Below, in pieces: positions 22,429 to 63,833 of a stretch of DNA of 64,000 nt. How positions within the stretch are numbered: position 1 is the first letter of the stretch; every line of letters begins with the position of its first letter. A program made the position numbers and the translations under genes. The notes below the pieces were generated by a model. The model did not search any database and was not told the DNA's origin. It was given only the letters and a program-made list of their open reading frames with translations. The stretch is from Quercus robur (taxonomy: Eukaryota > Streptophyta > Magnoliopsida > Fagales > Fagaceae): assembly GCF_932294415.1 (NCBI RefSeq), contig NC_065542.1, forward strand, positions 637,501 through 701,500, written 5' to 3'.

Positions 22429-24707
22429 CTAGGCTGAAGGGGGAATTTCATCGTCCTGGGTAGCCTGAGGTGGTTCAACGCCGGTGGACGCTCCTGTTTG
22501 AGCCGCCTCGTCCTCCTCAATCTCCTTATCAACGGCTTCAAAGTCCAGATCGTCAAGGCTCACGGCAGGACCATGCTTGACGAGATACCTTCGCAACAGC
22601 TCGAACCCTTTAAAGTACCACTGGAAGAGAAGGGTGTTGTATTCTTCAGAGGATTGGAAGGCAGTGACGGCTTTGGCTACTGCAACCTTCATCTTCTGAG
22701 CAGCCGTCGCTAGAAGTTCGTCCTTCTGCTTCACGGTTTGTCTCTCAGAATCCAGCTGCTCCGTCAGCACGCGGACTTGCTCCTTAGAAGCGTTGAGAGA
22801 GTCCATAGTTGTGATCAAGTCCTTGCGCAAACCAGAAGCTTCATCCTCCAAAGCGTCTACCTTCGAGTTGGCCACGACGGCCTTCTCCTCATTTGCCAGG
22901 TACTGAGTGGTGATGTGCATGGTCTCCCCCAACACCTATGGACGAATACAAAGTTAATAAAAGTTAGCTCAATAAAAAACAACAAAGATGAAAAACGAAG
23001 AAAAAAACAAGATGTATGACGATTCACCTGCACGAGTTTGTGGACGTGGCGGCTCACCATCTCGTGTGAAGGAATGCTCGTAACTTCCCTCATCTCAGCA
23101 GGGGTAAAGAGCTCGGTAGCACGGTCCATGGCTGTCCCTGCATCTGACCAAACGCTGGCATCAGCTTTCCCTTTTCCCTTGCTAGCAGCTTTCTGCTTCT
23201 TCGAGGGACGAGCAACCTCCTCGATTGAAACTCCAGGAGATGCAACCAGACCTTCGTCCAGATCAAGGGTAGGTGTGGACGACCCTCTCTCCACTACCTC
23301 TTTCTCCTTCTCCCTATCCGTGATCCTCAGCCGCTTCTGGCCTATGCTGGAAAGGGGCTCATTCTTTTTGCCCTTGATTTTAGCATACATCTCCTTGTTG
23401 AATTTTGACGTCATTTCTACCAAGGACGAATAAAAAAAGAGGCGTAAGGACGAGTAAAAAGAATGCAAGCAAACACAAAGAAAAAGCATGAAGTGCAACT
23501 TACGTTTTCTCTCTTCACGGTCAAGAGTACTGAGAACGTAAAGTGAAGGTTCTGGCCCCAGGCAGTGACGAGCCAAGGTTCGCGGATCAATCAACTCTCC
23601 AAAATCTTCTATCGTCCTGGCGTATTCAAGAGCAACCTGCACTCGCTTGGCAAACCTGGCCTCTAGCTCCGGACGGTCTTTCACTGCAAAAGGACGACGT
23701 CAAGACACAAGCTAAAAAAAAAAAAAAAAAAAAAAAAGAGGGCCCAACAACATTGGGAGACACGCACCAATCAACGGGGTCTCCCATCGTCGCAGCAACC
23801 TAGGAACATTCCCCCACAGATCGTCGGGCAACGTCTCCCAACCGTCCCCAGATACAAAGAAGTATCTTGACTTCCAGTAGCGAAAGGACGACGGAAGGTC
23901 AGCTACCAGACGGGCCTTCCTAGACCAAGGGACGAACTCGTAGTACCCAAACTCCCTGGACTCTTTCAGACGATACAAGTAGACAAACTCATTAACTGAG
24001 ATCATATCCCCGTCAGCAATGGTCGTCCAGATCACCATGCAGCTAATCACTATTCTCCAAGAGTTAGGCATAATTTGCCCCGGTGCAAGGTTAAAATGGT
24101 AAAGAAGCTCCATTATGAATGGATGGACGGGGAATCGGAGGCCACACGAAAAAGCTGCCTCGTAAAAGCAAACTTCTCCGTGGGCAAAGGCACAAGCTTT
24201 TTCGCCCTTCTTGGGTAGACGAGCCTTAGTTCCCTCTGGAAATTGAAATATGTCCTTAAACTTACTAAAAACCTCAACTTTTAAGGAGCAATTTTCCTTC
24301 AGGGCATGAAATCGACGGGCCGTCGCCGGAACAGGGGAATGGGAGGACGAAGGAGCACGGGAAGGAGTGGTGGTTATAGCGACGATCCCGGTCTCTTCCT
24401 CAACCACATTTGAGGACGAACCCCTCTCTAGATCACCTAACCCTTCTTCTAAACCCATATTTTCCCCTCTTAGTTGCCCTCTAATAGACCGAAACCAAGC
24501 CTGAGACTCCAACAGAAGGGGGTATAAAACACCCAACGCCGAACCTAACCCAGAACCCCTATTAACAAATTCCTCCACCACAGGGTACGAACCGGCGAGG
24601 GAAGGCGCACCCAATAGGTCACCAGAAAGCTCTACCAAGGAACCTAGGCGGGCAAGGAGAAAGGCTACGGAAGGGAAGCTACGCCTAACTTCGAAGGTGT
24701 CCACCAT
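22429..24707 (-). CDS. RE-A antisense gene: PF04195-like 'putative gypsy-type transposon' protein with coiled coil
   Basis: Exons by splice signals and comparison with RE-B: 24707-23768, 23683-23504, 23416-23028, 22935-22429. They join in frame to 671 residues with no stop, and all introns are GT-AG. It starts MVDTFEVRRSFPS. The core domain in exon 1 has CFYEAAFSCGLRFPVHPF, APGQIMPNSWRIVI and YLYRLKESREFGYYE, which I recognise as the plant 'transposase (putative) gypsy type' family. Exon 2 is exactly 180 nt. Exon 3 carries a basic nuclear-signal-like stretch RPSKKQKAASKGKGK. Exon 4 is a coiled coil followed by YNTLLFQWYFKGFELLRRYL and an acidic tail. Extra antisense ORFs in this place are known in some Tat elements. 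The function is unknown. It is intact although the sense gag-pol is broken. Confidence 0.8.

Positions 24708-39651: not shown

Positions 39652-39653
<2 letters not shown>
39466..39653. mobile_element. Nested MITE in left arm
   Basis: About 188 bp bounded by AATGATATGTGCACACAATT and its inverse AATTGTGTGCACATATCATT, inside the left TIR of the Mutator-like element. Confidence 0.7.
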
Positions 39654-39690
<37 letters not shown>

Positions 39691-40509
39691 GAAATGTGGC
39701 AATGGCATTGCCGAAATAGGAGGGAAAAATTTCCCTCCTATTTCGGCTAGGGGTGTGTTCGGTTCGGTTTCGGTCGGTTTGTATGGGTATGGCCAACCGA
39801 AACCGAATATTTCGGTTTGTGAAATTCTCAACCGAAACCGACCGAAATGGCTGGAAATCAATCGGTTTCGGTGTATTTCGGTTTCAATCGGTTTCGGTCG
39901 GTTTTCGGTTTTCCAAAGAGAGGGTTATTGAGATTTTCAAAACCACACCATAAGCTCAAAACACAAACAAAACCAGCATTCCACTCCAAATCAGTATTTG
40001 CTACTACTTATCCAAGAATTAACAAACCCCAATTCAAATAAAGATTAAAAATAAATAAATAAATAAAACAACACTTCAACTCTGCTAACAGATACCCTTT
40101 TTTCCAAAACAGAAATTCTTGATGTTCTTATCTGTTCAGAAAGAATCAGAGAATATGGAGAGGAAACTTATCTGGGAAAATGAAAATTCTTCTGAAGCTT
40201 AAAACTTTCCGGCGAAAAAAAAAAAAACTCAGAGGCAAGAAACTGCAGAGAAAGTTTGTGGGAAAATGGGATGTGAGGAATGGAAGGAAAGACCGACCAA
40301 TGTTCGTTGGTTTGGCGTTCTGTAATGTGCAAATGTGTAAGATTTTCACAGCTTGAAGAAAGAGACAGAAAAAATTGAGAGAAAAAGTTGGGGAAGGAGG
40401 CGCCTGAAGAAAAGAAAAGAAAAGGGAAGGATATAATAGGGGTATTTTCGTATTTATCTCATGCTCTAGGGTTTTAAAAAATTAAATAGCAAAAAAGACA
40501 CACACGCCC

Positions 40510-40935: not shown

Positions 40936-41150
40936 AAAAAAAAAAAAAAAAATTGAAATGTGCAGAAGGAATTTCGGTGATGGTGTTGCCGAAAATCAAA
41001 AATTTCTCTCTCCTACTTTTGTTGAATTTCGGCAACGGTATTGCCGAAATTCACTCTCTTTCCTCAAATTCCTAAATAAGTTGGAACAGTACCTATAGCA
41101 CAAATTAACTTCGAATTTAACAATATTAAGCCAAAAGACTCGCTTTCTAT

Positions 41151-42566
41151 AGTTTATTTGCAAAGCATTTATTAAAATATATATTTTTATAATTTTTATA
41201 CTAAATGTGTGACAAAAAAATTAAAAATTACTAACTTATTTTTAGGATTAAAAAAAAGGTTTTGGTAAATTTTGAAAAGAAAAAAAATAGAGACAAAAAA
41301 CAAAAATCAAACAAATTTAGCTAAACAAAACTCTTGAGAGCACATTCTCCAACATGTTTAATGAGTACATTTGTCATAGTATTTTCACTTCATTATTGTT
41401 CTTTAGGTTCTTTTAAATTTCAGTAATTTGTTTAATTAATAAACTTGATAAATTGGGTTAAAAAAGAACTTCTCTTTCTATTACCTTTTTTTCTCCTATT
41501 TCCTCTTAGTTCATTAAAAATATATGTCAATTAATTGAGCAATAAAATATTAAAACCCTTGGCTAGCTCTAAACTCACGCAGCCTACAGAGAGAAGTTGG
41601 ATTCATGGGCTCCGTTCACAATTTCTCTTAGTTGTGTCTTTTCCTGATTGTGAGTATTTAAAAATAGGTTGGATATAAGCCAACTATTAGAGTAAGTCAC
41701 TTCAACGTTTATCTCGACAACTCATATTAATATAAGTTTAAGTTTGAACTCAAATTTAAATTCACCTATTAGGTTAGCAATGTGGACTATTCATTGGCCA
41801 TGGGTTATGGGTTGGGTCAAACCGACCCAATTTCTAAATACTAACAAAAAAAATATTGAATTACATCTTGATAGATAATTAAGTTAAATAAACAATTATA
41901 ACATATTTTCTTTTATATATAGAAAAAGAGACCATAGTCATCTTGTAAAACATAATAGCTTCTAAAGTTTTGATTATCATCAACAAGCATTTTATGCGAT
42001 ATTATTTTATGTGTAAACCATTAAAAATCTATAAAAAAAAAACAAACTGTGAATTGTTTATGTAAGGAAGGACATATATCCATATTATTTTTCCCATAAA
42101 ACAATATCATAGGGAGGTTTTGTATTACACTAAAAAATCCCACTGAGTTTACACTTAAAATCTTTCATAGAGTTAGGACTATAAATAAGTAAGCTATTTA
42201 TAAAGTCATATTCAACTCTATAAAAAACTTGTTTTTGTTCGTTTATATAAGATACGAGCTAAATTCATGCTCAAATTTATGTGCAATTTAAACATAATAA
42301 TGTGTTCGTGAATAAATTTGTTAGACCTATAGTTAAATGATTAAATTTATCATTTTTTTTAAAGTTTAAACATTTAAAATAATTATTAATTTAACATGGT
42401 ATTAGAATATGAGATCTTCATTTCAATTCTTAGCTATATACTCTACCTCCCACAAAAGCTTAAGATTTGGGATAATTGACAATATAACAAAACTTACATG
42501 TATGATGCTAAGTAAATATAATATTAATTCATAAAAAAAGTACATATAATATTAATATTTCAATAA
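41151..42566. other. AT-rich spacer before RE-B
   Basis: Up to about 41560 this continues the duplicated block matching 53030-53505. The remainder is AT-rich without recognised genes. It includes a GGGTTGGGTCAAACCGACCC motif near 41810 that resembles the hAT subterminal repeats. Confidence 0.5.
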
Positions 42567-42571
42567 GAACC

Positions 42572-43048
42572 TGACGGGAATGACGACTCTACATCCCGCT
42601 GACGAAGATACCATTACTGACGGGAGAATCATCCATGACGAAGTGATCAGAAACAACGAAGGAAGCCATCATCACTGACGAGGCAGAGAGTGATTCAATA
42701 CGATCAATCAATGATCCGAGCAGTTACCAAATCAACCAAGAAGACCGTTGGAGGGCCTATTCAAAGTCTCATTACTAGCCAGGTGCGTTACAAAAGAAAG
42801 CATTAACAGCCTCAACGGCTAGCCCTTATGGGCTCAGGTATAAAACTCTCACACAACCAACAGAAGCGGATATATGCAAAAAATACTCTGAAACTATCTT
42901 TTATTTCTTTATTGTGTTTAACTGTGATCCTAACTTTGGCATCGGAGACTTTGTGGCAGGCGCCACACCGGTGTCCCTCGTCGTGCAAACCTTCACACCC
43001 CACGAGTGATTCCATCTGTTCATTCACTGACGGATTTGTGTTCCATCA
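42572..43048 (+). repeat. RE-B 5' LTR
   Basis: 477 bp. The first 120 bases contain six TGACG motifs. TATA-like TATAAAACTC at 42839-42848. Confidence 0.93.
42839..42848 (+). promoter_or_regulatory. RE-B LTR TATA box
   Basis: TATAAAACTC about 270 bases into the LTR, placed as in RE-A. Conserved in the 3' LTR (about 52142). Confidence 0.6.
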
Positions 43049-43051: not shown

Positions 43052-43068
43052 TGGCGCCGTCTGTGGGA
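43052..43068 (+). other. RE-B primer binding site
   Basis: TGGCGCCGTCTGTGGGA starts three bases after the 5' LTR, identical to RE-A and RE-C. Confidence 0.75.
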
Positions 43069-43124
43069 ACGAGTTTTCAGATTTACATTCGAAAACGTAG
43101 TTTCCATCAATTCACCATATCCAG

Positions 43125-46100
43125 ATGGAATCCAACCCAGATTCAACAGCCTTGGCCCAGCAAGTTCAAGCCCTGGCAGCCACCATTGAGGAACTCACTA
43201 GGCAGAACCAGGAAATGAAGCTGCGGCTCCAGCAGATTCAACAAGCTCAACAGGAAGAAAACCGGTCCAAGGGTAACACGGAGGGAGAGGGGGATAGCCA
43301 ACAGAGGGAAACCCCCCGGAGACCAACTACTCCGGACGAACAGAACTCAGATCTTCTTCGGGAAATGAGGAAAGAGATGGACGAACTAAGGAGCGCTATC
43401 AAGGAAAAGACAGACCGGAGTGTAGACAAGATGGTAAGGGCTACAGATTCGCCCTTCACTGCAGCAGTACTTGATTGCCCCGTGCCGTCAAAGTTTCGCC
43501 TGCCTCAATTAGAACCATTCGACGGACTCAAGGACCCTCAGGATCATCTTAATACCTTTAAGACGACTCTGGGCCTTCAACAACCACCTGACGAGATATT
43601 ATGCCGTTCCTTCCCTACGACTCTCAAAGGAGCTGCAAGAGAGTGGTTTACTAAGTTGCCAAACTCGTCCATAGACAACTTCGATCAGCTAAGTAGTGCT
43701 TTCCTGCGTCACTTCATAGGGGGACAACGCCCAAGGAGACCAGTAGATTACTTACTCACCATAAGACAGGGAGAGAAGGAGGCTCTGAGGTCATATGTCA
43801 AGCGATTCACCCGGGAAACACTGGAGGTGGACGAAGCTGATGACAAAGTACAACTGACGACCTTCAAGGCAGGGTTGAAATCCAGAGACCTTGTAGCCTC
43901 TCTTGCCAAAAACCCCCCGAAGACAATGGCTGAGATGCTCCTGAAGGCCCAAAAATACATGAACGCGGAAGACGCTCTAGCTGCCATAAAAGATACCGAG
44001 AGGCTAGGAGATAAGTCCAAGAGGGAAGACGACCGCAGAGGGCAAAAGAGAGACAGACCAGAACATCGGAACAGTGACGGGAATAGGAGGAGAGATGAAA
44101 AAAATCCTCGTCAGGTAAAATTTACTCCTTTGGTTATGCCTGTTGACAAGATTTTCACGCAGATCAAGGATGAGCATTATCTCAAATGGCCCAGGCCATT
44201 ACACTCGTCCCCCAACGTACGTGACAAGAACAAGTATTGCCGGTTCCACAGAGACCACGGCCACAACACAGAAGATTGCAGAGACCTGAAGGAACAAATA
44301 GAGGAGTTAATACGGAAAGGAAAGTTGCAGAAGTATGTAAAGAAAGGAGAATATAGCAAGTTCAGAGACGACAACAGGACCCAAAAGGAATCCTTCACTC
44401 AGGACGACGACCATACATCCCAACCTCCACGCAAAGTGATCGGGGAGATAAACACGATCACGGGAGGACCAATCGCAGGAGGGTCATTCAGATCGCTTAG
44501 AAAAGCATATCACAGACAGGTAAACAGCGTCCACGCCATTCCTCCGTCCAAGTACCAACGAACATACCAAGATATGTCCTTTAATGAAGGAGACGCCAGG
44601 GGAGTGAAACAGCTTCACAACGATCCCCTGGTCATAGTGCTGAATATAGAAGGGTTCAATACCAGAAGGATCCTTGTTGATAACGGAAGCTCGGCGGATA
44701 TCATCTACCTCCCAGCCTTCCAGCAGTTGAAGTTAGATCCAAAAAGGCTCCGTCCTTTTGACTCTCCGCTTGTTAGTTTCAGTGGAGACAGGGTCTACCC
44801 CAGGGGTATAGTGACTCTGACGGTGACAGCAGGGACCTATCCGTTGCAGCTGACCAAACAAGTAGATTTCCTAGTTGTAGATTGCCCCTCGTCCTACAAT
44901 GTCATCATTGGGAGGCCTACCCTAAACAAATGGAAGGCAGCAACAGCCACATACTGTTTGAAGGTGAAATTCCCAACAGACGATGGTGTAGGTGAAGTGA
45001 AGGGAGATCAGGTCCTGGCAAGGGAGTGCTACCAGGCCGTACTGGCAAGAAAGGAGAACCACACGTGGACGATAGAAGAAAAAGAGGAAGACGGAATGGA
45101 GATCCTGGAAGCAGTGGAGTTGGTAGAAGGAAATGCGGACAGGACAACCAGGATAGGGACGACGCTAAGCCCTGAGATGAGAGCGAAACTCATAAAGTTC
45201 CTTAAAGGGAATCTTGATGTCTTTGCATGGAGTCACGAGGACATGCCAGGCATATCTCCAGAGATCATCCAGCATAGACTGAATGTGGACGCCAACAGGA
45301 AGCCCGTTCAGCAGCGACGAAGAACTTTCGCTCCGGAGCGAGATCAGGCAGTAGCAGAAGAGGTAACCAAACTATTGACGGCTGGGTTCATCCGAGAGGT
45401 ATACTACCCAGAATGGCTCGCCAACGTCGTCCTGGTAAAGAAACCAAATGGAAAGTGGAGAATGTGTGTAGACTTCACTGACCTGAATAAAGCATGCCCA
45501 AAGGACAACTTCCCTCTACCAAGGATAGACCAGCTCGTGGACTCTACCGCTGGACACAAGTTGTTGACGTTCATGGACGCCTTCTCAGGGTACAACCAGA
45601 TAAAGATGGCTGAAGAAGACCAGGAGAAGACCGCCTTCATCACCAGCCAGGGACTTTATTGTTACAAGGTGATGCCTTTTGGGTTGAAAAATGCTGGAGC
45701 TATATATCAGAGGATGGTAAACAAAATGTTCAACCAAAAAATTGGTAGAAACATGGAGGTCTACGTAGACGATATGCTCGTCAAGAGTAAGGAAGAGCTT
45801 GCACATCTGAACGACCTGGAGGAGACTTTCGCAACCCTGAGAAAACACCAGATGAAGTTGAATCCAAACAAATGTGTTTTTGGGGTAGCCTCGGGAAAAT
45901 TCCTGGGATTCATGGTGTCCCAGAGAGGAATAGAAGCCAATCCAGAAAAAGTACAAGCTATCATTGACATGGCCCCACCCAAGACCGTCAAGGAGGTACA
46001 AAAACTTACAGGAAGGATAGCAGCTCTAAATAGGTTCGTCTCTAGGGCCACAGACAAATGCCTGCCCTTTTTCAAAACCCTCAAGCAAGCTTTCGTTTGG

Positions 46101-48299
46101 ACCGACGAATGCGAAGCAGCGTTCCAAGAGCTGAAGCGATACCTGAGCAGTCCACCTCTCCTGAGCCCGTCCAAAGGAGGGGAGAACCTATACTTGTACC
46201 TGGCGGTGTCAGTCTCGGCAGTCAGCGCAGCCTTGATTAGAGAAGAGGGCAAAAAGCAACTCCCAGTGTACTACGTCAGTCAGGCCTTTCAAGGAGCCGA
46301 GTTCAGATACCCAAGGATTGAAAAGATTGCGTTCGCGCTTATAGTAGCCTCGCGCAAGCTCAGGCCGTATTTCCAGTCAAATCCTATCCTTGTGATGACG
46401 GATCAGCCAATTAAGAAATCAATGAACAGACCAGAAGCAGCAGGGAGAATGGTCCAATGGGCAATCGAACTCAGCCAATTTGACATCGAGTACCATCCAA
46501 GAGCAGCCATCAAGGCACAAGCTCTGGCTGACTTCATCGCCGAATTCACTCTTCCAGACGAAGAAGGAACTACAGACGAAGTTGATAAATGGACAATACA
46601 GACAGATGGTTCGTCGGCCCAAAAGAGGGGGGGAGTAGAGGTCGTCATAACTACCCCCGACGGAGAAGTGATGAAGTATGGAGTTCAACTGGAATTCCCG
46701 GCCACCAATAATGAAGCCGAATATGAAGGAATATTGACGGGCTTGAGGCTTGGAAAAGCTCTTGGTGCCAAAAATTTGCTGGTCCAGAGTGATTCAAAGC
46801 TGGTAATCGGACAGATCAGTGGAGAGTACGAGGCAAAGGAAGAAAGGATGCAGAAATACCTTCAACTAACGAGGCAATTAACTCAGGAGTTCGACACAGT
46901 GGATTTCGTCCAGATACCAAGAAACCAGAATATTGAAGCTGACGAAGTGTCGAAACTAGCGTCGTCAGAAGCAGGAATGACAAGCACAGACGTGGCAATA
47001 GAAATTCAGAAATGCCCAAGTATTGAAGAGGTAGCAGTGCTCACCACCCAGGGCACAAACACCTGGATGACGCCCTTAATATCCTTCCTCTAAGACGGAC
47101 ACTTACCTCAGAATACTGACAAAGCCAGAAAGGTCAGAAAGAGAGCGGCTAGGTTCACGATCTTAAATGACGTCTTGTACAAGAGAGGCTTCTCTATGCC
47201 CTACCTGAAGTGCGTCGGCGAGGACGAGGCCAAATACATCCTAGAAGAAGTACACGGAGGAGTCTGTGGCGACCATGCCGGCCCCAGATCCCTAGTAAAC
47301 AAGGTGATAAGAGCGGGGTACTTTTGGCCAACCATGCAGGGGGATGCTGCTAACCTCGTCAGAAGATGCAACAGATGCCAGCGGTACGGGAATGTACAAC
47401 GGCTTCCAGCAGAGAAGATGACGACCATATCCTTCCCATGGCCATTCGCGCAATGGGGAATCGACATCGTCGGTCCCCTGCCCCAAGGTAAAGGTCAGGT
47501 AAAATTCCTTCTAGTTGCTATTGACTATTTCACAAAATGGGTTGAAGCAGAGGCCTTAGCAACCATCACTGAGGCTCGGATCCGGAGCTTCGTGTGGAAA
47601 AACATTATTTGCAGGTTCGGGATCCCTTTGACGATCATATCTGATAATGGGAAGCAGTTCGATAGCCAAGGCTTCAGAGAGTTCTGCTCGAACCTCGGGA
47701 TCAAGAATCAGTTCTCATCCCCGGGACACCCCCAAGCAAATGGACAGACGGAAGTAACAAACAGGACGCTGCTCAAGATAATCAAAACCAAGCTGGACGA
47801 AGCAAAAGGTGCCTGGCCAGAGGAACTGCCTAGTGTCTTGTGGGCATACCGGACTACAGCCAGAACCCCGACAGGAGAGACGCCCTTCAGGCTTACCTAC
47901 GGCTCAGAAGCAGTGATCCCAGTAGAAGTTGGAGTAACAAGCATCAGGCGAGGAGCTTTCAGAGAGGGACTCAATGACGAGGGGCTGCGGTTCAACCTGG
48001 ATTGCTTGGATGAAATAAGAGACAACGCGTCCAGTAGAATGACAAAGTATCAAAAGAAAATGGCCGAGTATTACAATAAGAGGGTCAAACTCAGGCGTCT
48101 GGCCATAGGGGACCTCGTCCTTCGCGAAGTCACTATAGCTACTAAAGATCATACTCAAGGGAAGCTGGGCCCTACATGGGAAGGGCCATATCGCGTCGTT
48201 CATTACTCTAGGCAAGGGAGTTACCATCTGGAAACTATGGACGGACGAAAGCTCCCTCGTCCTTGGAACATTGAGCATTTAAAGAAATACCATGAGTAA
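43125..48299 (+). pseudogene. RE-B gag-pol polyprotein with one premature stop
   Basis: One frame of 1725 codons with a single internal stop, TAA at 47091-47093, where RE-A has a Gln codon (CAA to TAA). Domains by residue: gag capsid region around 173, CHHC zinc knuckle ([14 protein letters not shown]) about 371, protease VDNGSSADI about 519, RT YVDDM about 880, first RNase H from about 1020 with LAVS where the catalytic DAS is expected, second RNase H from about 1158 with TDGSS, NNEAEYE, QSDSKL and EADEV, integrase zinc ligands HGGVCGDHAG / CNRCQ near 1376, and a D-D-35-E triad at about 1467, 1507 and 1543. The stop separates the RNase H part from integrase. Without read-through the element makes no integrase. 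Otherwise full length. Confidence 0.93.
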
Positions 48300-48405
48300 A
48301 TGTAACACACGAATGCACTCATTACTGAAGTTAATAAAAATATTATTCATTCAATGTTTGTGCGCAGGCAGTACAGGTCGACCATGAGGCCTATAAATCA
48401 TTAAT

Positions 48406-48900
48406 TAACAAGATTTCGCCTTGACGGATGTAAGTTACGGACGACCATAATACTATGGTAAAAAGACTAAGTAACAAGATTCCGCCTTGACGGATGTAAG
48501 TTACTGACGACCATAATAATATGGTTGAAAACTAAGTAACAAGATTCCACCTTGACGGATGTAAGTTACTGACGACCATAATACTATGGTTGAAAACTAA
48601 GTAACAAGATTCCGCCTTGACGGATGTAAGTTACTGACGACCATAATACTATGGTTGAAAACTAAGTAACAAGATTCCGCCTTGACGGATGTAAGTTAAT
48701 GACGACCATAATACTATGGTTAAAAAGACTAAGTAACAAGAGTCCGCCTTGACGGATGTAAGTTACCGACGACCATAATACTTTGGTTAAAAGACTAAGT
48801 AATAAGATTCCGCCTTGACGGATGTAAGTTACTGACGACCCTAATAATGAGGTTAAAAGACCAAGTGACAAGAGTCCGCCTGGACGGACGTGAGTCAAAC
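48406..48900 (+). repeat. 65-bp tandem array after RE-B pol
   Basis: Eight units of about 65 bp with AACAAGATTCCGCCTTGACG, GATGTAAGTTACTGACGACC and ATAATACTATGG. Each unit carries two TGACG motifs. The same array occurs in RE-B2. Confidence 0.92.
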
Positions 48901-49151: not shown

Positions 49152-51362
49152 TCAAGCATCAGCAGTGCCTTCACTGGCCGGCACGTCAGCAACAGGCTCG
49201 TGAGCATCCTCGGGAGCATCATCACCAAGAGCAGAAGACAAAGCCGCCTCCTCCAGAGCCATCTCCTTGTCCACTTCCTCCAAATCCAGGCTCTCCAGGT
49301 TGACTCCAGAAGGATGCTTGATCATGTACCTCCGGAGAAGCTCAAAACCTTTAAAATACCAACTAAAGAGCACGGTGTTGTACTCGTCAGTGGTCTGGAA
49401 AGCCTCCACAGACCGAGCAGCGATGGTCACCAGTTTCTCCTTGGCTGCCAGAAGCTGCTCGTCCTTCTCAAGAGTCAACCCGCGCTCAACTCTGAGGTCG
49501 TCCTCCAACACCTTGACCTTCTCCTTGAACGTTGTTGCCTCGTCCACGGAAGAGATCAGGTTCGTCCTCAGGTCAGAGTTCTCCTTCTCCAGAGCCTCCA
49601 TCCGAGTGGCCAAAGATGCCACCTTGGCCCCTTGAGTGAGATACTCGGCAGTGATATGGATACTCTCTCCCAGCACCTGGAGGGAATTATGAAGTCGTCT
49701 ATTAAAAAAAAAAAAAAAAAATGATGATAAAGAGAGAAGAACCCCGCACCTGGACAAGTTTGTGGACGTGACGAGAGGCCACATCGTTTAAGGATAGGTC
49801 AGAAAGAGCCTTCAAGTCCGATGAAGTAACGACCTCGTGAGCTCTTTCTACGGCCAGAGACTCGTCATCCCATATTGTGGATGAACGAGTACCCGTCTTC
49901 TCCTTCCCTTTGCCAGACACACGCGGCCTTTTGGAGCTGGGAGTAGGGATCTCTTCTATTGAAACGGCCGGGGAGGCAGTCCTCGTCGTCTCAGAAGCTA
50001 TTGAAGGAACGATGCTGAGCGGGATGGAAGCAGGACCCTTCCCGGTGACTCGCACAGTCTTCTTCCCCAAATTGGACAGGGGTTCGTCCTTCTTTGACCT
50101 CATTTTTGCATACATGTCCTTGTTGAACTTTGTCGTCATCTCTGCAAGAAGAAAGTATGTCAAAAAAAATTGCTTAAGTATACATAAGGGGAATCAGCAT
50201 TGACGAAGTTATACATAAGGGGAATCAGCATTGACGAAGTTAAAACTTACTCTTTTTGCCTTCAATGCCAAGCTGACGAAGAACGAAAGGAGATGGGTCA
50301 GGACCAAGGTTGTAAAACGCAAGAGATCGAGGGTCAACCAGCTCGTCCCAGCTCTCAATCGTCTCAGCGTACCCGATGGCGGTCTCTATGCGTTCCTTAT
50401 ATCGTCTCTTCAGCCCATGCCGTCTCTTAACTATACCAAACAAAGAAACAAAGAAGTCAGCAAGACCAGAACTTCAAAATTGGCAAGATTGAAACAACGG
50501 GGAGAAATACTGACGCACCTAAGGTCGGGGTTCCCCACCGACGGAGCAACCTCGGGATATCACCCCAATCACTGCTAGATTGGGTCTCGAAGTCGTCCCC
50601 AAACACAAAGAAAAAGCGCGACTTCCAATACCTGAATGACGAGGGCAACCCCTTGACGATCCTAATCTTTCTCTCCCAAGGGACTAATTCGTAATACCCC
50701 CACTCTTTAGACTCTTTCAAACGATACAGGTAGGTGAGCTCACCTATCCTGATCATATCCCCGTTGGAGGCCAACCAGATTTGCATACAGTTAATGACGA
50801 TCCTCCACGAGTTTGGCATGAGCTGTCCAGGGGCTATACCAAAATGATCTAAAAGTTCCATCAGGAACGGGTGGACGGGGAACCTAAGCCCACAGGTGAA
50901 GGCTGACTCATAAAAACATATTTCGCCTGGAAAGAAGTGACAAGCCCTATCTTCCTCCCTAGGACGACGAACACGAACCCTAGACGGAAATTGGAACCTA
51001 TCCTTAAATCTATTCACGGTCTCATCATCCAGACCACAGATCTCCCTAAGGGCATAAAAAGCCCTAACCTCTCGAGAACCAGAGACGGCGGTATCTCCTT
51101 CAGCCGGGCCACCACTGGACGATAGCCCAGTCTCGAGGTCACTAGACCTAACCTCAGACATTAATCTTCTCCCTCCTAAACCCTCAAACCAATTTAGCGA
51201 TTGACGGAGCAACGGCAACAAATCACTCAAAACGACGCTCAGACTATTGCCTTCGTACACAAAATTTTCTAAAAAAGGGTAAGTACCCAAAGACCCCCCT
51301 AGACGTGCAAAAAGGAAGGAGATCGACGGGCAAGCTATCCTAACCTCTAAGCTATCAACCAT
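49152..51362 (-). CDS. RE-B antisense gene: PF04195-like protein with coiled coil, intact
   Basis: Exons 51362-50519, 50430-50251, 50141-49750, 49676-49152 join in frame to 646 residues. All introns are GT-AG and the splice phases are 1, 1, 0. It starts MVDSLEVRIACPSISF. The core (about 145-280) has GEICFYESAFTCGLRFPVHP, APGQLMPNSWRIVI and YLYRLKESKEWGYYE. Exon 3 has a basic stretch SKRPRVSGKGKEK, a possible nuclear signal. Exon 4 begins VLGESIHITAEYL, is a long coiled coil, then has YNTVLFSWYFKGFELLRRYM and an acidic Ala-rich tail. An upstream in-frame extension to 51551 exists, but the MVDS start is shared with RE-A and RE-B2. It lies opposite the sense transcript, between the repeat array and the 3' LTR. 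Its role in the element's life cycle is unknown. Confidence 0.82.
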
Positions 51363-51859
51363 GGAAAATACAGAAATCAAAAGGAAAACAAGGTACGAAA
51401 CTGAAACCTCAAAAGAAAAACGAAAGCCAACACCAGAATAGAAGCGAAAAGGGAATAGCAAATAAGAAATTATATAGTAAAAGAAGAAAAAGAAGAAAGA
51501 AAAAGGAAAGAAGAACATACCTCCAATGGCGGAACGGCAGAAGCAACGCAAGGCAAATCGGAGAAGAAAGGAAGCCTCAAAATATTCAGAGTATCACTAA
51601 AAAACTGGTTTGCTTTTGCTCTCTGAGAAATAAACGAAAAGTTGAAAAGGAGAAGTTTTAAATGTGGGCCAAAAACGATTGAAAAACCAGCGGGAAACCC
51701 AAGGGTCATGCCATTAATTCCACAGACCATCAAGCGCCACGTGGCCATGATTGCGTGTAGCGCCGCCACTAAGCATTAAAGGCGGAACAGAACCCCAAGA
51801 GTCACAAGAAAAACTTTTCATCTTCTGTGATCGTCATGACGGGTCATTGACGACCCCAG

Positions 51860-51874
51860 AACCTGGGGGGCATC
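51860..51874 (+). other. RE-B polypurine tract
   Basis: AACCTGGGGGGCATC lies immediately before the 3' LTR. The same feature, inverted, adjoins the RE-B2 LTR at 60485. Confidence 0.65.
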
Positions 51875-52351
51875 TGACGGGAATGACGACTCTACATCCC
51901 GCTGACGAAGATACCATTACTGACGGGAGAATCATCCATGACGAAGTGATCAGAAACAACGAAGGAAGCCATCATCACTGACGAGGCAGAGAGTTATTCA
52001 ATGCGATCAATCAATGATCCGAGCAGTTACCAAATCAACCAAGAAGACCGTTGGAGGGCCTATTCAAAGTCTCATTACTAGCCAGGTGCGTTACAAAAGA
52101 AAGGATTAACAGCCTCAACGGCTAGCCCTTATGGGCTCAGGTATAAAACTCTCACACAACCAACAGAAGCGGATATATGCAAAAAATACTCTGAAACTAT
52201 CTTTTATTTCTTTATTGTGTTTAACTGTGATCCTAACTTTCGCATCGGAGACTTTGTGGCAGGCGCCACACCGGTGTCCCTCGTCGTGCAAACCTTCACA
52301 CCCCACGAGTGATTCCATCTGTTCATTCACTGACGGATTTGTGTTCCATCA
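51875..52351 (+). repeat. RE-B 3' LTR
   Basis: 477 bp, four base differences from the 5' LTR by eye. Followed by GAACC. Confidence 0.93.
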
Positions 52352-52356
52352 GAACC

Positions 52357-54095
52357 CATATATTTCTATAATTCTATTTTATTTTTTTTCCGGGGTAGAT
52401 TCCTGGAAGATTGGGCCTGGACTCGGGAGGCCATGCAAACTGTAGAAAAACTGAATACTTCTACTTTACTCGTGAATTCCGTACCCTGTGTCTCACTTGG
52501 TTCTTTACTTCTTTTGGTTAGTCACGCTCATGCAGGCAGAAATCACTTCCACGGTTCCACCAATGATGACTTTCTCTATTCTTTTCTAACTTTTTGGAAA
52601 AAAATAAAAGAAAAAAAGTGACGTTAATCATGATAGCTTTTGAATTTGAGCAAGTTTGTCATTTGCGCACATTATACGAGGACTTTTGTCGCTGCTCAAT
52701 GCTTTCCACCGAAACTTGGTTGGATTTTTTTTTTCCTACTTCTTAATAATATATTTGGAACAGTTTATTTGATTTCATTTAATTTATTTATTTTATATAC
52801 AGTATTATATAATTTATTTTTTTAATATATTTTTTTTTTCAATTAATGTTTTTAATTAAAATAAGTTAAGGAAAATAAATTATAACAATGGCAGGTTTAC
52901 AATTGTAACCTAATTTAAATATTTTTTAGAACTACATAAATAAGCAAAGATAAAATGTTGAAACAAACGGTTATGATATAGCCAAAAGCCAAACTATATG
53001 TGTAAGTTTGGGTGTCTCATAGCTTTCTATAGTTTATTTGCAAAGTATTTATTAAAATATATATTTTTATACTTTTTATATTAAATGTGTGATAAAAAAT
53101 TAAAAATTACTAACTTATTTTTAGGATTAAAAAAAAAGGTTTTGTTAAATTTTGAAACAAAAAAAAATTTGAGACAAATAACAAAAATCAAACAAATTTT
53201 GCTAAACAAAACTCTTGAGAGCACATTCTCCAACATGTTTATTGAGTACATTTGTCATAGTATTTTCACTTCATTATTGTTCCTTAGGTTCTTTTAAATT
53301 TCAGTAATTTGTCTAATTAATAAACTCGATAAATTGGGTTAAAAAAGAACTTCTTCTCTTTTCTTTTTTTTTTTTTTTTTTTATTTTATGTGAGAACTTC
53401 TCTTTCTATTATCTTTTTTTTTCTCTCCTTTTTCCTCTTAGTTCATAAAAAAAAAATGCCAATTAGTTGAGCTATAAAATATTAAAACCTTTGGCTAGCT
53501 CTAAACTCACTATTAATATTATTTTATCAACTACATTTAAATCTGCCACCTTAACTGATATGAAATATCTCGTAAAAATCAAATCAAATCAAATATACCA
53601 TTCCAAACATATCAATAAAATGACAAAATGTGAATCCGAATCCGGTTTGTAGGAAACTATTGGGCAGTGACAATTGTCCTAAATAATGTGCACATGAGCT
53701 CAAATTCAAAAGGCAGCAAGATAATTGATGTGTTAAATTTTTTTTCAAAAGTTAGAACGAATAGTCATACATTGACCGGTGATTTCTGTCTTGAGTCTTG
53801 ACTAACCAAAAGAAAAAAAGTGAGACAGAAGGTACAGCATTCACGTGTCAAGTATTCAATTTTTTTCAACATTAATCAATCAGTTTGCAAATGGCCTCCT
53901 CCAACCAAACAACTTCCTCCCTAAGATTTCTAGCAAACCGAGCTAAAGAATGGGCTACTCCGTTAACAACATGTCTAAGCTGATTGGTCTCAGCTGGGGA
54001 ACCTTTATGAGGATATTCACTGCTCGGTTGGAAGGTTGCGGTAAAATAAGACTTAAAATTATTGAATTTAGCCAAAAAAAAAAAAAAGGACTTAG

Positions 54096-57961: not shown

Positions 57962-60002
57962 ATATAGATAGTATAGATGAATCCTGTCTCTATCTCACTT
58001 TTTTCCTTTTTTTAGTCATCACTACTCAGAAATCACTTACAACATTGATATTATGTAAAATAAACATTGCCTCTACTTCTAGGCTTCTAAAAATTCTTTA
58101 CGCTGACATGTCGAATCAGATCTAAAAATGAATCCTCTGTCTCACTTTTTTCCTTTGATTTTTTTTTTTCCTTCATCTCTTCATGTAATTTTTATATTTA
58201 ATTATTATTTTTAAAGAGTGAGAGTTTACACTTTAGACCCTAATTTATGGCTTATATCAATTTAAACCTAATTAACAAATTAAGTCCAATTGTTAATATG
58301 ATTAGCCAATGCATGGATGGATACACAATCATAAAAGCAAATCCCAATAGCAAACACAAGAACCCAAACACCACAAAGTGTTTGTAGAGGGAAAAAAAAA
58401 AAAAAAAAAAAACTCAAAACTCAAAACTCTCTGGAGACTATAGCACCAACTAATGCACTAACTACAATAGCTGTGCAATACATCACACTTACAAGCCCTC
58501 CAAACTATATAAAGGAAATTGAATTTGAGTTCAGACAAAGTTTAGCTATAAAATTGGTTGTAACCTTAGGCTACAGTCTTAAAATAAACATTGAATCATA
58601 TTTTAAAAATCTAATCGTTGAATTACATGTTCTTTATGCTCTTAATACACATGTCAAATTTTGTGTCAATCGGATATTATTTACTATATGATCTATAAGT
58701 TTATATTTCATGCATAATTTCAAACTACAAAAACTTATAATTTAAACAATTTATTGTGACGTAACTGTTATTCTTTAATTTTTTAGGAATTTCACAAGCA
58801 TGGAGGATATAAAAAGAAAATGTAATTCAATGGTGAATTTTTCAAAATTCACCTCCAAAAAAAAAAGATATTGAGTAAGATTATAGCCTAAGGTACAACT
58901 AATTTTGTAGCTAAATTTTGTCTTTTAAGCTTCATGCTCCTACTCCCAACTGATTACACCAATCCTTTTTCCATGTTAGTTTTTGGTTTTGCAAGTTGAG
59001 TCACCTATTAGAATTATGATTACATTCATTAATTGTTTTATAACAGTTTAATCTTTTGACACAATTAATAATTTACCATGGTATCAAAATAAAAGATTCT
59101 AAGTTCGATCAATGTTTTCATTCTATGTGTATAAGGTTTTGAATCTCCTCACTATGGAATTGGTAATTGGAGAGTTTTTATTTTTGTTGATAAAATTGAA
59201 GAGGTTAAAGGTAGAGAGACAACATAGATTTTTGCTCTAGGGTAAAGGGTAACTCTCTCACACTTCAATATGAGAATCAAGTATTGTATTTCGTGGGTTG
59301 AGAAGGCTATATGAGAGTTAATTGGATGGGTACAACAGGGAAGTGTGTAACTAAAATTCTATTAGGTTCTAGAAATCTTGCTCAATCGAGTATCAGTTGA
59401 GTGTCAGGCGAGATTGCAAGTAACAAATTTTTAAAACTTGCACTTTGCTTGACATTTCGCATGACACACCAAATTCACTCATCCAAGATGCTCAATGCAG
59501 CAACTTCAACTCCAACACTTTGACCTCTCAATTAAATACAAATTAACGGACAGAAGAAAATACATGGAAAACCAATCAATAGAAAGAACATATAATTGAG
59601 TTAATAGGTTTTATTGATTTTTATATGAACTCACTTTTTTAATATATAATTAAATAGTTGAGAAGTAGAGATTTTGAATTCTGAATGTTTATATTAGAAA
59701 TATTAGGAGGTGTCAACACCTTCGGCTGTGAACTAATTATTAACGTATCAACTACCATTCACAACTGCCATCTCATTGAGAAATATTTTGTGAAAATCAA
59801 ATCAAACAAACTGTTCTAAAATCCAAACATGTTACTATTAAGAGGCATAATTTTTTTTTTTTTTTTTTTTTTAAAGAAAGAGATGACAAAATGTGAATCC
59901 GAATCCGGTTTGTAGGAAAGTATTAGGTAGAGCCTCAGAGACAACGGTCCTAAATAACGTGCACATGATCACCTTTAGCTCAAATTCAACAGGTAGCATG
60001 TT
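57962..60002. other. Third copy of the duplicated spacer
   Basis: Homologous to 29217-29551 joined to 35955-37360, with the RE-C site empty at about 58275. Contains no supported gene. It ends where RE-B2 inserted. Confidence 0.75.
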
Positions 60003-60484
60003 TGATGGAACACAAATTCGTCAGTAAGAGTGGGCAGATGGAATTCCCTGTAGAATATGAAGGTCCGCTCGATGAGGGCCACCGGTGTGGTGCCTGCCAC
60101 AACGTCTCCGATGCCAAAGTTAGAATAAAGGATAAACACAATAAAGAAGTAGAATGTGCTTTCAGAGTATTTTTTGCATATATCTTCCCTTCTGTTGATT
60201 GTATGGAAGCTTTATACCTGGGGCCTTAGGGGCTAGCCGTTGAGGCTGTTAATGCTCTCAGAAGTAACGCCCCTGGTCCAGTAATGAGACTTTTAAGAGG
60301 CTCCCAACGGTCTGCTTGGTCGATTTAGTAACTGCTCAGGTCATTGATTGACTGCATTGAATGATCCCCTGCCTTCGTCAGTGATGATGGTTTTCTTCGT
60401 TATTTTTGATGACCTCGTCATGGATGATTCCTTCGTCACTATTGTTATCTCCGTCAGTGGGAGGTAGAATCGTCATTCCTGTCA
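60003..60484 (-). repeat. RE-B2 3' LTR
   Basis: 482 bp. On the minus strand it starts TGACAGGAATGACG (60484) and ends TTCCATCA (60003). Homologous to the 477-bp RE-B LTR with many substitutions. Confidence 0.88.
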
Positions 60485-61009: not shown

Positions 61010-63169
61010 ATGGTTGATAGCTTGGAGGTTAGGATAGCTTGCCCGTCGATCTCCTTTCTTTTTGCGCGTCTAGGGGGGTCTTTGGGTAATTACCCGTTTT
61101 TAGAAAATTTTGTGTACGAGGGCAATAGTCTGAGCGTGGTTTTGGGCGAATTATTGCCCTTGCTCCGTCAATCGCTCAATTGGTTCGAGGGTTTAGGAGG
61201 GAGAGGACTAATGTCTGAGGTTAGGTCTAGTGACCTTGAGACTAGGCTATCATCTAGTGGTGACCCGGCTGAAGGAGATACAGCCGTCTCTGGCCCTCGA
61301 GAGGTTAGGGCTTTTTATGCCCTCAATGAGATTTGTGGTCTGGATGCCGAGACCGTAGGTAGATTCAAGGATAGGTTCCAATTTCCGTCTAGGGTTTGCG
61401 TTCGTCTACCTAGGGAAGAAGATAGGGCCTGTCACTTTTTTCCAGGCGAAATATGCTTTTACGAGTCAACCTTTACTTGCAGGCTTAGGCTCCCCGTCCA
61501 CCCGTTCCTGATGGAACTTTTAGATCACTTTGGTATAGCACCCGGGCAGCTTATGCCTAACTCGTGGAGGATCGTCATCAACTGTATGCAAATATGGTTG
61601 GCCTCCAACGGGGATATGATCAGGATAGGCGAGCTCACCTACCTGTATCGTTTGAAAGAGTCTAAGGAATGGGGGTATTATGAATTAATCCCTTGGGAAA
61701 GAAAAACTAGGATCGTCAAGGGATTGCCCTCGTCATTCAGGTATTGGAAGTCGCGCTTTTTCTTTGTGTCTGGGGACGACTTCGAGACTCAATCCAGCAG
61801 TGATTGGGGTGATATCCCGAGGTTGCTCCGTCGGTGGGGGATCCCGACCTTAGGTGCGTCAGTATTTCTTCCCGTCGTTTCAATTTTGCCAATTTTGAGG
61901 CTCTGGTCTTGCTAACCTCTTGACTTCTTTGTTTGGTATAGTTAAGAGACGGCCCGAACTGAAGAGACGGTATAAGGAACGCATAGAGACTGCGATCGGG
62001 TAAGCTGAGACGATTGAGAGCTGGGACGAACTGGTTGACCCCCGGTCTCTTGCATTTTACAACCTTGGTCCTGACCCGTCTCCCTTCGTTCTTCGTCAGC
62101 TTGGCATTGAAGGAAAAAAGAGTAAGTTTTAACTTCGTCAATGCTGATTCTTCTTATGTATACTTAAGCAATTTTTGACACACTTTCTTCTTGCAGAGAT
62201 GACGACAAAATTCAACAAGGATATGTACGCAAAGATGAGATCAAAGAAGGACGAACCCCTGTCCAATCTGGGGAAGAAGACTGTACGAGTCACCGGGAAG
62301 GGTCCTGCATCCATCCCGCTCAGCATCGTTCCTTCCATAGCTTCCGAAACGACGAGGACTGCCTCCCCGACCGTTTCAATAGAAGAGATTCCTACTCCCG
62401 GCTCTAAAAGGCCGCGTGTGGCTGGCAAAGGGAAGGAGAAGACTGAAACTCGTTCATCCACAATATGGGATGACGAGTCATTGGCCGTAGAAAGAGCTCA
62501 CGAGGTCGTCACTTCAGCGGACTTGAAGGCTCTCTCTGACTTGTCCTTAAACGATGTGGCCTCTCGTCATGTCCACAAACTCGTCCAGGTGTGGGGTTCT
62601 TCCCTCTTCATCATTTTTTTTTCTTTTTTTATGGACGACTTCATAATTCCCTCCAGGTGTTGGGAGAGAGTCTCCATATCACCGCTGAGTACCTCACTCA
62701 AGGGGCCAAGGTGGCGTCTCTGGCAACCCGGATGGAGGCCTTGGAGAAGGAGAACTCTGACCTGAGGACGAACCTGATCACTTCTATGGACGAGGCAACG
62801 ACATTGAAGGAGAAGGTCAAGGTGCTGGAGGACGACCTCAGAGTTGAGCGCAGGTTGACTCACGAGAAGGACGAGCAGCTTCTTGCAGCCAAGGAGAAAC
62901 TTGTGACCATCGCTGCTCGATCCGTGGAGGCTTTCCAGACCACTGACGAGTACAATACCGTGCTCTTCAGTTGGTATTTCAAAGGTTTTGAGCTTCTCCG
63001 GAGGTACATGATCAAGCATCCTTCTGGAGTCAACCTGGAGAGTCTGGATTTGGAGGAAGTTGACAAGGAAATGGCTCTGGAGGAGGCGGCTTCATCTTCT
63101 GCCCCTGGTGATAATGCACCTGAGCCTGTTGCTGACGTACCGGCCAGTGAAGGCACAGCTGATGCTTGA
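61010..63169 (+). pseudogene. RE-B2 antisense gene, one nonsense codon
   Basis: Same four exons as RE-B: 61010-61853, 61942-62121, 62197-62588, 62657-63169, with lengths 844, 180, 392 and 513 and the same GT-AG borders. Exon 2 contains TAA at 62001-62003 where RE-B has a Tyr codon, which would end the protein after about 301 residues, within the region just after the core domain. All other exons are open. The core motifs FPGEICFYES, APGQLMPNSWRIVI and YLYRLKESKEWGYYE and the exon 4 coiled coil are kept. Confidence 0.82.
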
Positions 63170-63434
63170 TTTTTAATACTTAGAAATTTTCCCTTTTGTT
63201 TTATGGTGGGTGCCCGTCTTGTTTTGGGCCTTTTCTTTTTGTAAATCTAATCTTAAAACAGTTAATTTTATTTTGAAAACAATGATAGTGGCCCAGCGGT
63301 TATGGGCTTGAGTGAAGCGTACTTACTTTTCCTCTAGATGTTTTGATTTACATCTGTCTATAACTTTTGTGCTTTGTCAATCAGTTGTTACATTCTGTTT
63401 TGATTTGATGTACTGCGCTCTTTTTTTATTTATC

Positions 63435-63745: not shown

Positions 63746-63833
63746 TCATGGTTGACTAGTACTGCCTGCGCAAAAACATCAGAGGAATAATACTTTTATT
63801 AACTTCAAGAACGAATGCCTTCGTGTATTACAT

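What the first reader, a model, noticed from the sequence alone, without database searches (positions are those of the whole stretch)
49152..51362. Intact four-exon gene carried antisense inside a Tat-lineage retrotransposon
The sequence shows four open exons with consensus GT-AG borders joining to 646 residues on the strand opposite gag-pol. Introns inside an antisense ORF of an LTR element are unusual because a sense genomic RNA keeps them while only an antisense transcript is spliced. The protein has a PF04195-like core, a basic nuclear-signal-like stretch and a coiled coil. It could act on the element's own transcription or on host silencing, or serve as an element-borne nuclear factor. 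Antisense ORFs in some Tat elements are known. The spliced structure and combined domain layout are what I would examine as possibly undescribed.
Basis: partly seen in the sequence, partly recalled or inferred. Interest (0 to 1): 0.82.

Follow-up and report, generated by a model that had tools for sequence, protein, structure and literature searches.

The report
Spliced antisense gene in oak retrotransposon
A jumping DNA element in an oak-type genome carries, on its back strand, an intact gene made of four pieces that must be spliced together; such back-strand genes were known in this group of elements, but the splicing, kept in every close copy examined, was not described in the papers that could be read here.

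Summary
Window 51362-49152 (minus) holds four exons joined by three GT-AG introns into 646 codons, antisense to gag-pol, inside a complete LTR element (LTRs 42572-43048 / 51875-52351, target duplication GAACC). Beyond chance: (i) 41 of 41 aligned copies keep all three GT-AG introns, 34 of 41 are intact (set biased to close copies), and introns 2-3 vary in length while exons hardly do; (ii) B versus C dN/dS 0.08; (iii) another element in the window (A, 49% protein identity) has the same exons and intron phases; (iv) 29 of 30 loci picked only by Pfam PF04195 match all four exons in order; (v) two Castanea database proteins cross the same junctions. No intronless copy was found for junctions 1 and 3.

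Antisense PF04195 ORFs are a published hallmark of Retand elements (all but two of 63 analysed clusters, PMC11963269), and maize Grande gene23 has its own promoter and a nuclear protein. Element and domain are ordinary; the conserved spliced gene, uniting PF04195 core and coiled coil, is the new part. No RNA evidence was available and the core fold was not predicted. Best mechanism: a nuclear, oligomeric regulator made from the element's own antisense promoter.

The parts
42567..42571 (.). 5-bp target site duplication GAACC (left copy)
   Evidence: read
42572..43048 (+). 5' LTR of element B (477 bp, TG...CA)
   Evidence: 4 mismatches against the 3' LTR in the 479 positions compared
43052..43069 (+). 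primer-binding-site-like TGGCGCCGTCTGTGGGAA, 3 nt after the 5' LTR
   Evidence: the same motif follows the 5' LTR of element A; tRNA not assigned
43125..47093 (+). gag - reverse transcriptase - RNase H - second RNase H (RVT_3) ORF, 1322 aa
   Evidence: Pfam: Retrotrans_gag 3.3e-16, RVT_1 1.4e-35, RT_RNaseH 8.5e-17, RVT_3 3.3e-19
47175..48299 (+). integrase ORF, same frame as gag-pol, after one in-frame stop at 47091-47093
   Evidence: (rve 2.2e-16, Integrase_H2C2 7.6e-10)
48402..48895 (.). array of about 7.5 copies of a 65-66 bp tandem repeat between pol and the antisense gene
49152..49676 (-). antisense gene exon 4 with stop (525 nt); coiled coil and conserved WYFKGFELLRRY stretch
49677..49749 (-). 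intron 3 (73 nt, GT-AG, phase 0); 65-108 nt in 41 copies
49750..50141 (-). antisense gene exon 3 (392 nt); basic SKRPR/KGKEK stretch
50142..50250 (-). intron 2 (109 nt, GT-AG, phase 1); 75-135 nt in 41 copies; holds a 31-bp duplication in B
50251..50430 (-). antisense gene exon 2 (180 nt); basic KRRHGLKRRYKER stretch
50431..50518 (-). intron 1 (88 nt, GT-AG, phase 1); 88 nt in 41 of 41 copies
50519..51362 (-). antisense gene exon 1 (844 nt, ATG at 51362-51360); PF04195 core
51401..51520 (-). candidate 5'-leader intron (donor GT 51520-51519, acceptor AG 51402-51401); both dinucleotides kept in 41 of 41 copies; untested
51656..51664 (-). TATA-like CATTTAAAA upstream of the antisense gene: CATTTAAAA in 38 of 41 copies, ATTTAAAA in 40 of 41; untested
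51864..51874 (+). polypurine-tract-like TGGGGGGCATC next to the 3' LTR
51875..52351 (+). 3' LTR of element B
52352..52356 (.). target site duplication GAACC (right copy)
22429..24707 (-). the same four-exon antisense gene in element A (LTRs 15745-16240 / 25203-25698, target duplication AACTT): exons 24707-23768, 23683-23504, 23416-23028, 22935-22429; introns 84/87/92 nt; 671 aa
   Evidence: PF04195 4.9e-10 in exon 1
61010..63171 (+). the same gene in copy C (inverted relative of B, cut by the window end): same exons and GT-AG introns, one nonsense codon in exon 2

Best explanation
It is the antisense accessory gene of a Retand-type (Tat clade) Ty3/gypsy retrotransposon: a real four-exon protein gene, read from an antisense promoter between the 3' LTR and the ATG, spliced at three conserved introns, and kept by selection on the element. 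SHOWN by sequence: gene structure, its conservation, purifying selection, generality among the loci sampled in this genome. INFERRED: it is transcribed and spliced; the 646-aa protein oligomerises through its long C-terminal helix, enters the nucleus through basic stretches, and acts there on the element's own DNA or RNA as a regulator (of the kind proposed for Grande gene23 and for antisense proteins of HTLV). The introns survive because the genomic RNA that is reverse-transcribed is the sense strand, in which they are not recognisable to the spliceosome; antisense is the orientation in which an element can keep a multi-intron gene. By the same logic the gene most likely entered the element as genomic DNA, not as an mRNA copy.
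For: 41 of 41 copies (window B and C plus 39 genome copies) keep GT-AG at all three introns, with no variant in 12 dinucleotide columns where intron-wide variation predicts 4.6 segregating columns (P about 0.01). Exon lengths are constant except for an in-frame 12 nt in exon 4 and two copies with frame-breaking deletions (L010, L041), while introns 2 and 3 take 13 and 29 different lengths. B-C dN/dS 0.081 (bootstrap 0.055-0.124), third-position changes 112 of 154. Variants shared by two or more copies: 158 synonymous, 49 non-synonymous or stop, pN/pS 0.094. Element A: same four exons, same phases, 49% identity. 29 of 30 PF04195-picked loci match all four exons in order; of 87 intron slots 68 are exact GT-AG at extrapolated borders, and of the 70 whose two flanking matches reach the exon ends 64 are (my tally). 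Database proteins P0001 (Castanea sativa, 652 aa, 66% over 100%) and P0002 (Castanea dentata, 621 aa, 67% over 96%) run through all three junctions without a gap. Joined junction 1: 0 matches in the genome; its unjoined form is in 39 of 39 fetched copies. Literature precedent.
Against: No RNA data were available, so splicing and expression are inferred from conservation. Introns are not frame-breaking everywhere: in element A introns 1 and 2 are multiples of three (84, 87 nt) and the ORF 23684-22857 runs in frame through intron 2; the unnamed protein P0022 reads in frame through introns 1 and 2 of a relative and leaves the frame only at intron 3; open frames of 577-582 aa around the PF04195 match are listed for some loci. 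The database proteins are automatic predictions, and some differ: P0041 matches copy C by eye but skips exon 2, P0009 is nine residues shorter than element A's product, missing at junction 2, and P0034 takes another frame in exon 4. The core has no confident fold (pLDDT about 50 overall, blocks up to 66) and no relative of solved structure by sequence, so DNA or RNA binding is not shown here. Singleton variants also show pN/pS 0.28, below the value near 1 expected for purely post-insertion changes, perhaps because copies were picked for closeness to B. Six of 70 fully reached intron slots are not GT-AG.
Confidence: 0.6

Rival explanations
1. The antisense RNA itself is the functional product: pairing with genomic RNA gives dsRNA and small RNAs that limit the element, and the protein is secondary.
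For: Proposed for antisense ORFs in PMC7264820; the antisense unit overlaps the 3' part of the genomic RNA.
Against: Codon-level selection and a frame kept in exons but not in introns: an RNA-only function does not predict this. Both roles may coexist.
Confidence: 0.12
2. The protein serves particle assembly or nuclear import of the pre-integration complex and not gene regulation; coiled coil and basic stretches would suit that.
For: Basic stretches and long coiled coil; a nuclear import role is discussed in PMC7264820.
Against: An own antisense transcription unit and splicing uncouple its level from gag-pol, which suits a regulator better (inference); nothing tested directly.
Confidence: 0.25
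3. A recently captured host gene that rides as a passenger.
For: Introns and a promoter-like leader look like a host gene.
Against: The gene is in A, B, C and 29 of 30 Pfam-picked loci, down to 42% identity in single exons; PF04195 has 4148 loose first-look candidates in this genome, of which 150 were scored and matched; the same domain is in all but two of 63 Retand clusters of eudicots and monocots. Capture, if any, is ancient.
Confidence: 0.04
4. Unspliced or chance ORFs: four open stretches with chance GT-AG borders, or in some relatives one long unspliced frame.
For: Single borders are common; introns 1 and 2 are open and in frame in some relatives (A intron 2, P0022).
Against: In B all three introns shift the frame and hold stops; same borders, phases and order in many families under selection.
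Confidence: 0.02
5. The core is a divergent plant mobile domain (as in MAIN/MAIL1) that competes with the host silencing pathway.
For: Retrotransposon-borne PMD clades exist (PMC5418596, passages); two relatives, P0017 and P0021, bear a source name beginning 'Aminotransferase-like plant'.
Against: Profile-profile comparison with nine oak PMD sequences: probability 0.2%; Pfam lists PF04195 (below its cut-off) and not PF10536 for P0017 and P0021.
Confidence: 0.03

Closest known systems
Retand lineage antisense TRP28 (PF04195) ORFs, Vicient 2025 (PMC11963269)
   Same: Antisense ORF with PF04195 between pol and 3' LTR; tandem repeats in the same region; LTR 477 bp, internal 8826 bp and pol-3'LTR 3575 bp lie within the published ranges (315-1194, 7380-12869, 2933-6566 bp); separate SMC-like antisense ORFs are also reported there
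   Different: There ORFs were predicted with ORF Finder (104 antisense ORFs, 57 with TRP28), so introns would not be seen; here PF04195 core and coiled coil are exons of one gene. Neither A (1 LTR mismatch) nor B (4) meets that paper's criterion of identical LTRs
Grande gene23 of maize (Gomez-Orte et al. 2013; seen here only through PMC7264820)
   Same: Antisense accessory gene between pol and 3' LTR, promoter upstream of it, nuclear protein
   Different: Whether gene23 is spliced, and its length, could not be read (paper not held)
Ogre gag-pol intron (PMC6317226, passages)
   Same: Intron carried by a Tat-clade LTR element (clade placement of Ogre recalled)
   Different: Sense-strand intron, spliced in a subset of transcripts; here three antisense introns that splicing of the genomic RNA cannot remove
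HTLV antisense gene (HBZ), as cited in PMC11963269 and PMC7264820
   Same: Antisense accessory gene near the 3' LTR with a nuclear protein; a spliced form and a leucine zipper are recalled, not read here
   Different: No sequence relation tested; analogy only

Membership tests
Ty3/gypsy, Tat clade | gag, RT, RNase H, integrase in the gypsy order | tested here: met
Ty3/gypsy, Tat clade | second, additional RNase H after the native one | tested here: met
   RT_RNaseH 1021-1119 followed by RVT_3 1160-1278 in the 1322-aa ORF; that an additional RNase H is a Tat feature is from PMC6317226; that RVT_3 here is that domain is my reading
Retand lineage | reverse transcriptase groups with Retand references in a tree | not tested
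   no named reference RT sequences were fetched
Retand lineage | antisense PF04195 gene between pol and 3' LTR | tested here: met
   over the Pfam cut-off
Retand lineage | long pol-3'LTR region with frequent tandem repeats | tested here: met
   3575 bp; array 48402-48895
PRARE (potentially recently active Retand element) | identical LTRs and identical target repeats | tested here: not met
   B 4 LTR mismatches, A 1; target duplications identical in both
Grande gene23-type antisense gene | transcribed from its own promoter | tested here: inconclusive
   conserved TATA-like motif and pyrimidine-rich leader upstream; no RNA
Grande gene23-type antisense gene | nuclear protein | not testable with these tools
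   basic stretches only
Plant mobile domain (PF10536) | detectable PMD homology | tested here: not met

The most novel reading that the evidence does not exclude
Retand elements as a group carry one ancient multi-exon antisense gene, not several antisense ORFs, and use splicing as a strand filter: only antisense transcripts are spliced, exported and translated, so the element gains a host-gene-like nuclear regulator, separately controlled from gag-pol, that feeds back on its own sense transcription or on silencing. Antisense orientation would then be required, because a sense gene would lose its introns in one cycle.
Probability: 0.3. Interest if true: 0.75.

Novelty: new variant of a known kind. 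Interest (0 to 1): 0.52.

Why it matters
The survey of antisense ORFs of Retand elements that I could read used an ORF finder, which cannot see introns. If the antisense ORFs are exons of one spliced gene, the catalogue (ORF counts, short TRP28 ORFs, separate SMC-like ORFs) has to be redone, the protein to express and test is the spliced one, and RNA-seq can look for a clear signature: antisense junction reads at three fixed places. The introns also bear on the open question of origin: a multi-intron gene in antisense points to entry as DNA.

Tried and rejected
Chance ORFs: rejected. Recent host-gene capture: judged unlikely. Plant mobile domain homology: rejected by profile comparison. Fold of the core: two AlphaFold runs gave low confidence over the core, so no fold search was run. 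PDB sequence search with the core profile A3: 0 matches up to E 10. Rfam on the window at gathering scores: 0 matches. Bacterial promoter scan of the leader: nothing, and not suited to a plant. The weak bZIP and Myb Pfam matches (E 0.085 and 0.09, below cut-off) are treated as coiled-coil or chance matches. Search for intronless copies: junction 1 joined, 0 matches in the genome; junction 3 joined, 3 matches, each reading as the end of intron 3 plus exon 4 in copies already held (L035, L021, L018), so not joined exons; junction 2 was checked only in the 69 fetched loci, 0. All these patterns fit B's family closely and would miss distant families. The genome-wide positive control did not complete; the control is local (unjoined junctions 1 and 2 in 39 of 39 copies, junction 3 in 13 of 39; in the 30 Pfam loci 17, 7 and 13). 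Two key papers (Gomez-Orte 2013, Steinbauerova 2011) are not held, so whether splicing of an antisense ORF was reported there is unknown. Passages seen that added nothing decisive: PMC3091746, PMC11728184, PMC12786077, PMC7156037.

Full report
WHAT IS THERE. The minus strand of window 51362-49152 reads ATG, then four exons of 844, 180, 392 and 525 nt (with stop) separated by introns of 88, 109 and 73 nt, all GT-AG, giving 646 codons. Each intron shifts the frame and holds a stop in the continuing frame. The gene lies between integrase and the 3' LTR of a complete LTR element, here called B: LTRs 42572-43048 and 51875-52351 (4 mismatches in 479 compared positions), target duplication GAACC, a primer-binding-site-like motif 3 nt inside, gag/RT/RNase H/second RNase H in one ORF and integrase in a second ORF of the same frame after one stop. 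A 65-66 bp tandem array (48402-48895) lies between pol and the gene's 3' end.

WHERE IT COMES FROM. The window lies in a 785.7-Mb assembly of 42 contigs. Named protein relatives come from Castanea, Quercus and Lithocarpus. Two assembly contigs have the lengths 56,641,698 and 56,648,912, which equal the contig lengths listed for Quercus robur proteins P0009 and P0041; so the genome is very probably the Q. robur reference.

TWO MORE COPIES IN THE SAME WINDOW. Element A (15745-25698; LTRs with 1 mismatch in 496, target duplication AACTT) carries the same gene as exons 24707-23768, 23683-23504, 23416-23028 and 22935-22429, introns 84, 87 and 92 nt, 671 aa, 49% identical to B's product, with introns at the same codons and phases. 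Two of A's introns are multiples of three, and an ORF runs in frame through intron 2 (23684-22857), so keeping that intron would not break A's frame. Copy C (60002 to the window end, inverted) belongs to B's family; its gene has the same exons and GT-AG introns and one nonsense codon in exon 2.

MANY COPIES. A genome search with B's exon 1 gave 535 candidates of which 40 were scored, all 97-100% identical. I fetched the 39 that are not B and aligned them with B and C. All 41 keep GT-AG at all three introns. Exons 1 and 2 have one length in 41 of 41; exon 3 in 40 of 41; exon 4 has one of two lengths that differ by 12 nt in 40 of 41. Intron 1 is 88 nt in all; intron 2 has 13 lengths (75-135), intron 3 has 29 (65-108). 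34 of 41 are open from ATG to the final stop; the other seven are C, L009, L010, L022, L034, L041 and L047. The set is biased: 40 of the 41 are the best matches to exon 1, so the intact fraction is not that of the whole family; exons 2-4 and the introns were not selected on. In the 12 splice dinucleotide columns no copy differs; at the rate of the other intron columns 4.6 would segregate (Poisson P about 0.01).

SELECTION. B against C: dS 0.317, dN 0.026, ratio 0.081 (0.055-0.124), changes at codon positions 27/15/112; each of the four exons below 0.10, the N-terminal 140 codons 0.14. Variants shared by at least two copies: 158 synonymous, 48 non-synonymous, 1 stop (pN/pS 0.094); singletons: 138, 118 and 9 (0.278). 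Stops are thus almost confined to singletons, as expected for decay after insertion, but the singleton ratio is well below 1, which does not fit simple neutrality and which I ascribe, without proof, to the choice of close copies. Between A and B synonymous sites are saturated; dN is 0.44 for this gene against 0.17 for gag and 0.19 for RT-RNase H, so the gene evolves faster than gag-pol, its core (residues 141-281, 0.25) slowest.

GENERALITY. A search of the genome with Pfam PF04195 gave 4148 loose first-look candidates, of which 150 were scored and 30 cut out as loci. These 30 were picked by Pfam score only. 29 of 30 match all four exons in order on one strand, at 42-98% identity per exon; in L059 the matches to exons 1 and 2 overlap and in L072 about 455 nt lie between them; L053 shows exon 1 only. 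Of 87 intron slots 68 are exact GT-AG at extrapolated borders (20, 21 and 27 of 29); of the 70 slots whose two flanking matches reach the exon ends, 64 are (19 of 20, 21 of 25, 24 of 25; my tally, summed). Castanea proteins P0001 and P0002 pass all three junctions without a gap. Other automatic models differ: P0009 is nine residues shorter than A's product at junction 2, P0034 changes frame in exon 4, P0041 skips exon 2. The unnamed protein P0022 reads in frame through introns 1 and 2 of some relative before it leaves the frame at intron 3, and some loci have open frames of 577-582 aa around the domain: in part of the relatives introns 1 and 2 are thus open and the case for splicing there rests on the borders and on intron 3.

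NO INTRONLESS COPIES. A 26-base joined pattern for junction 1 with up to 3 mismatches has no match in the genome. The joined pattern for junction 3 has three matches, each reading as the end of intron 3 plus exon 4. On the fetched loci the unjoined forms of junctions 1 and 2 are found in 39 of 39 copies, that of junction 3 in 13 of 39; joined forms are in 0, 0 and 3 of 39 copies (the three just named) and 0 of 30 Pfam loci. Junction 2 was not searched in the whole genome, and the patterns fit B's family only. So there is no sign that the antisense mRNA is reverse-transcribed back into elements, in keeping with the sense genomic RNA as template.

UPSTREAM. About 510 nt separate the ATG from the 3' LTR. 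In them a TATA-like CATTTAAAA (51664-51656) is kept in 38 of 41 copies (ATTTAAAA in 40), and a donor-like GT (51520) and acceptor-like AG (51402-51401) in 41 of 41, a possible fourth intron in the leader. These are motifs, not evidence of initiation or splicing.

PROTEIN. PF04195 at residues 148-189. AlphaFold of P0001 (37 sequences): confident only within the C-terminal helix 468-567. AlphaFold of the exon-1 core (94 sequences): mean pLDDT 50. No solved relative by sequence. No plant-mobile-domain homology.

WHAT IS KNOWN. Vicient 2025 (PMC11963269; parts 1-3 of 5 and a term search) surveyed 617 assemblies; all but two of the 63 clusters analysed (97%) encode PF04195 ('TRP28') antisense between pol and the 3' LTR, function unknown, DNA binding predicted. 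ORFs were found with ORF Finder; 'intron' does not occur, 'exon' and 'splic' only in its references. Vicient and Casacuberta 2020 (PMC7264820, parts 1-2 of 3) report Grande gene23: antisense, promoter upstream of it, nuclear protein; they ask for a look at antisense and spliced transcripts. Neumann et al. 2019 (PMC6317226, passages) describe an intron in Ogre gag-pol and reverse-oriented extra ORFs as a class. Ikeda et al. 2017 (PMC5418596, passages) describe retrotransposon-borne plant mobile domains. I found no description of introns in antisense PF04195 genes with searches; two likely sources are not held, so priority cannot be claimed.

MECHANISM. Shown: a conserved, selected, multi-exon antisense gene. 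Inferred with high confidence (about 0.85): it is transcribed and spliced at these places. Inferred with moderate confidence (about 0.45): the protein is a nuclear, self-associating regulator of the element's own DNA or RNA. Antisense orientation explains how introns persist in a retrotransposon and suggests entry as genomic DNA.

VERDICT. Observation confirmed; element and domain ordinary; conserved spliced architecture apparently undescribed in what could be read, a new variant of a known kind. Interest 0.52.

Noticed in passing
window 15745-25698 (+): Second complete Retand-like element (A) with nearly identical LTRs (1 mismatch in 496) whose pol is split over several ORFs (17704-18705, 18735-20570, 20907-21422) while its antisense gene is intact; 49-bp tandem repeats at 21466-22053.
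   Followed up: partly
window 60002-64000: Third copy (C) of B's family, inverted and cut by the window end; database protein P0041, listed on a contig of the same length as the window's, matches its exons 3-4 by eye and skips exon 2, where C has a nonsense codon.
   Followed up: partly
window 7408-8853 (-): ORF of 481 aa with a Sad1/UNC (SUN) domain, E 1.8e-34: probably a host gene.
   Followed up: no
window 30488-32184 and 33475-33710: 81-bp tandem array (about 20 units, most 96-100% alike) with long open frames on both strands (575 and 542 aa), and a related short array nearby.
   Followed up: no
window 38977-39270, 41142-41492 versus 52747-53371: Repeat pair about 94% alike on both sides of element B, so B seems nested in an older repeat; inside the left copy an inverted pair 39261-39717 / 41141-40692 (97%).
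   Followed up: no
window 50179-50242: 31-bp duplication inside intron 2 of B; copies such as C lack it, so intron length changes by non-multiples of three.
   Followed up: yes
window 36105-37315 versus 58641-59892; 29218-29556 versus 57963-58301; 29554-30306 versus 35202-35954: Further repeated stretches of 88-99% identity within the window, not identified.
   Followed up: no
P0022, P0036 (protein database, source ena): Unnamed proteins of this family that read on from exon 1 into intron 1, P0022 also through intron 2 in frame, as plain ORF calls do; they show how ORF-based surveys would cut or blur the gene.
   Followed up: partly
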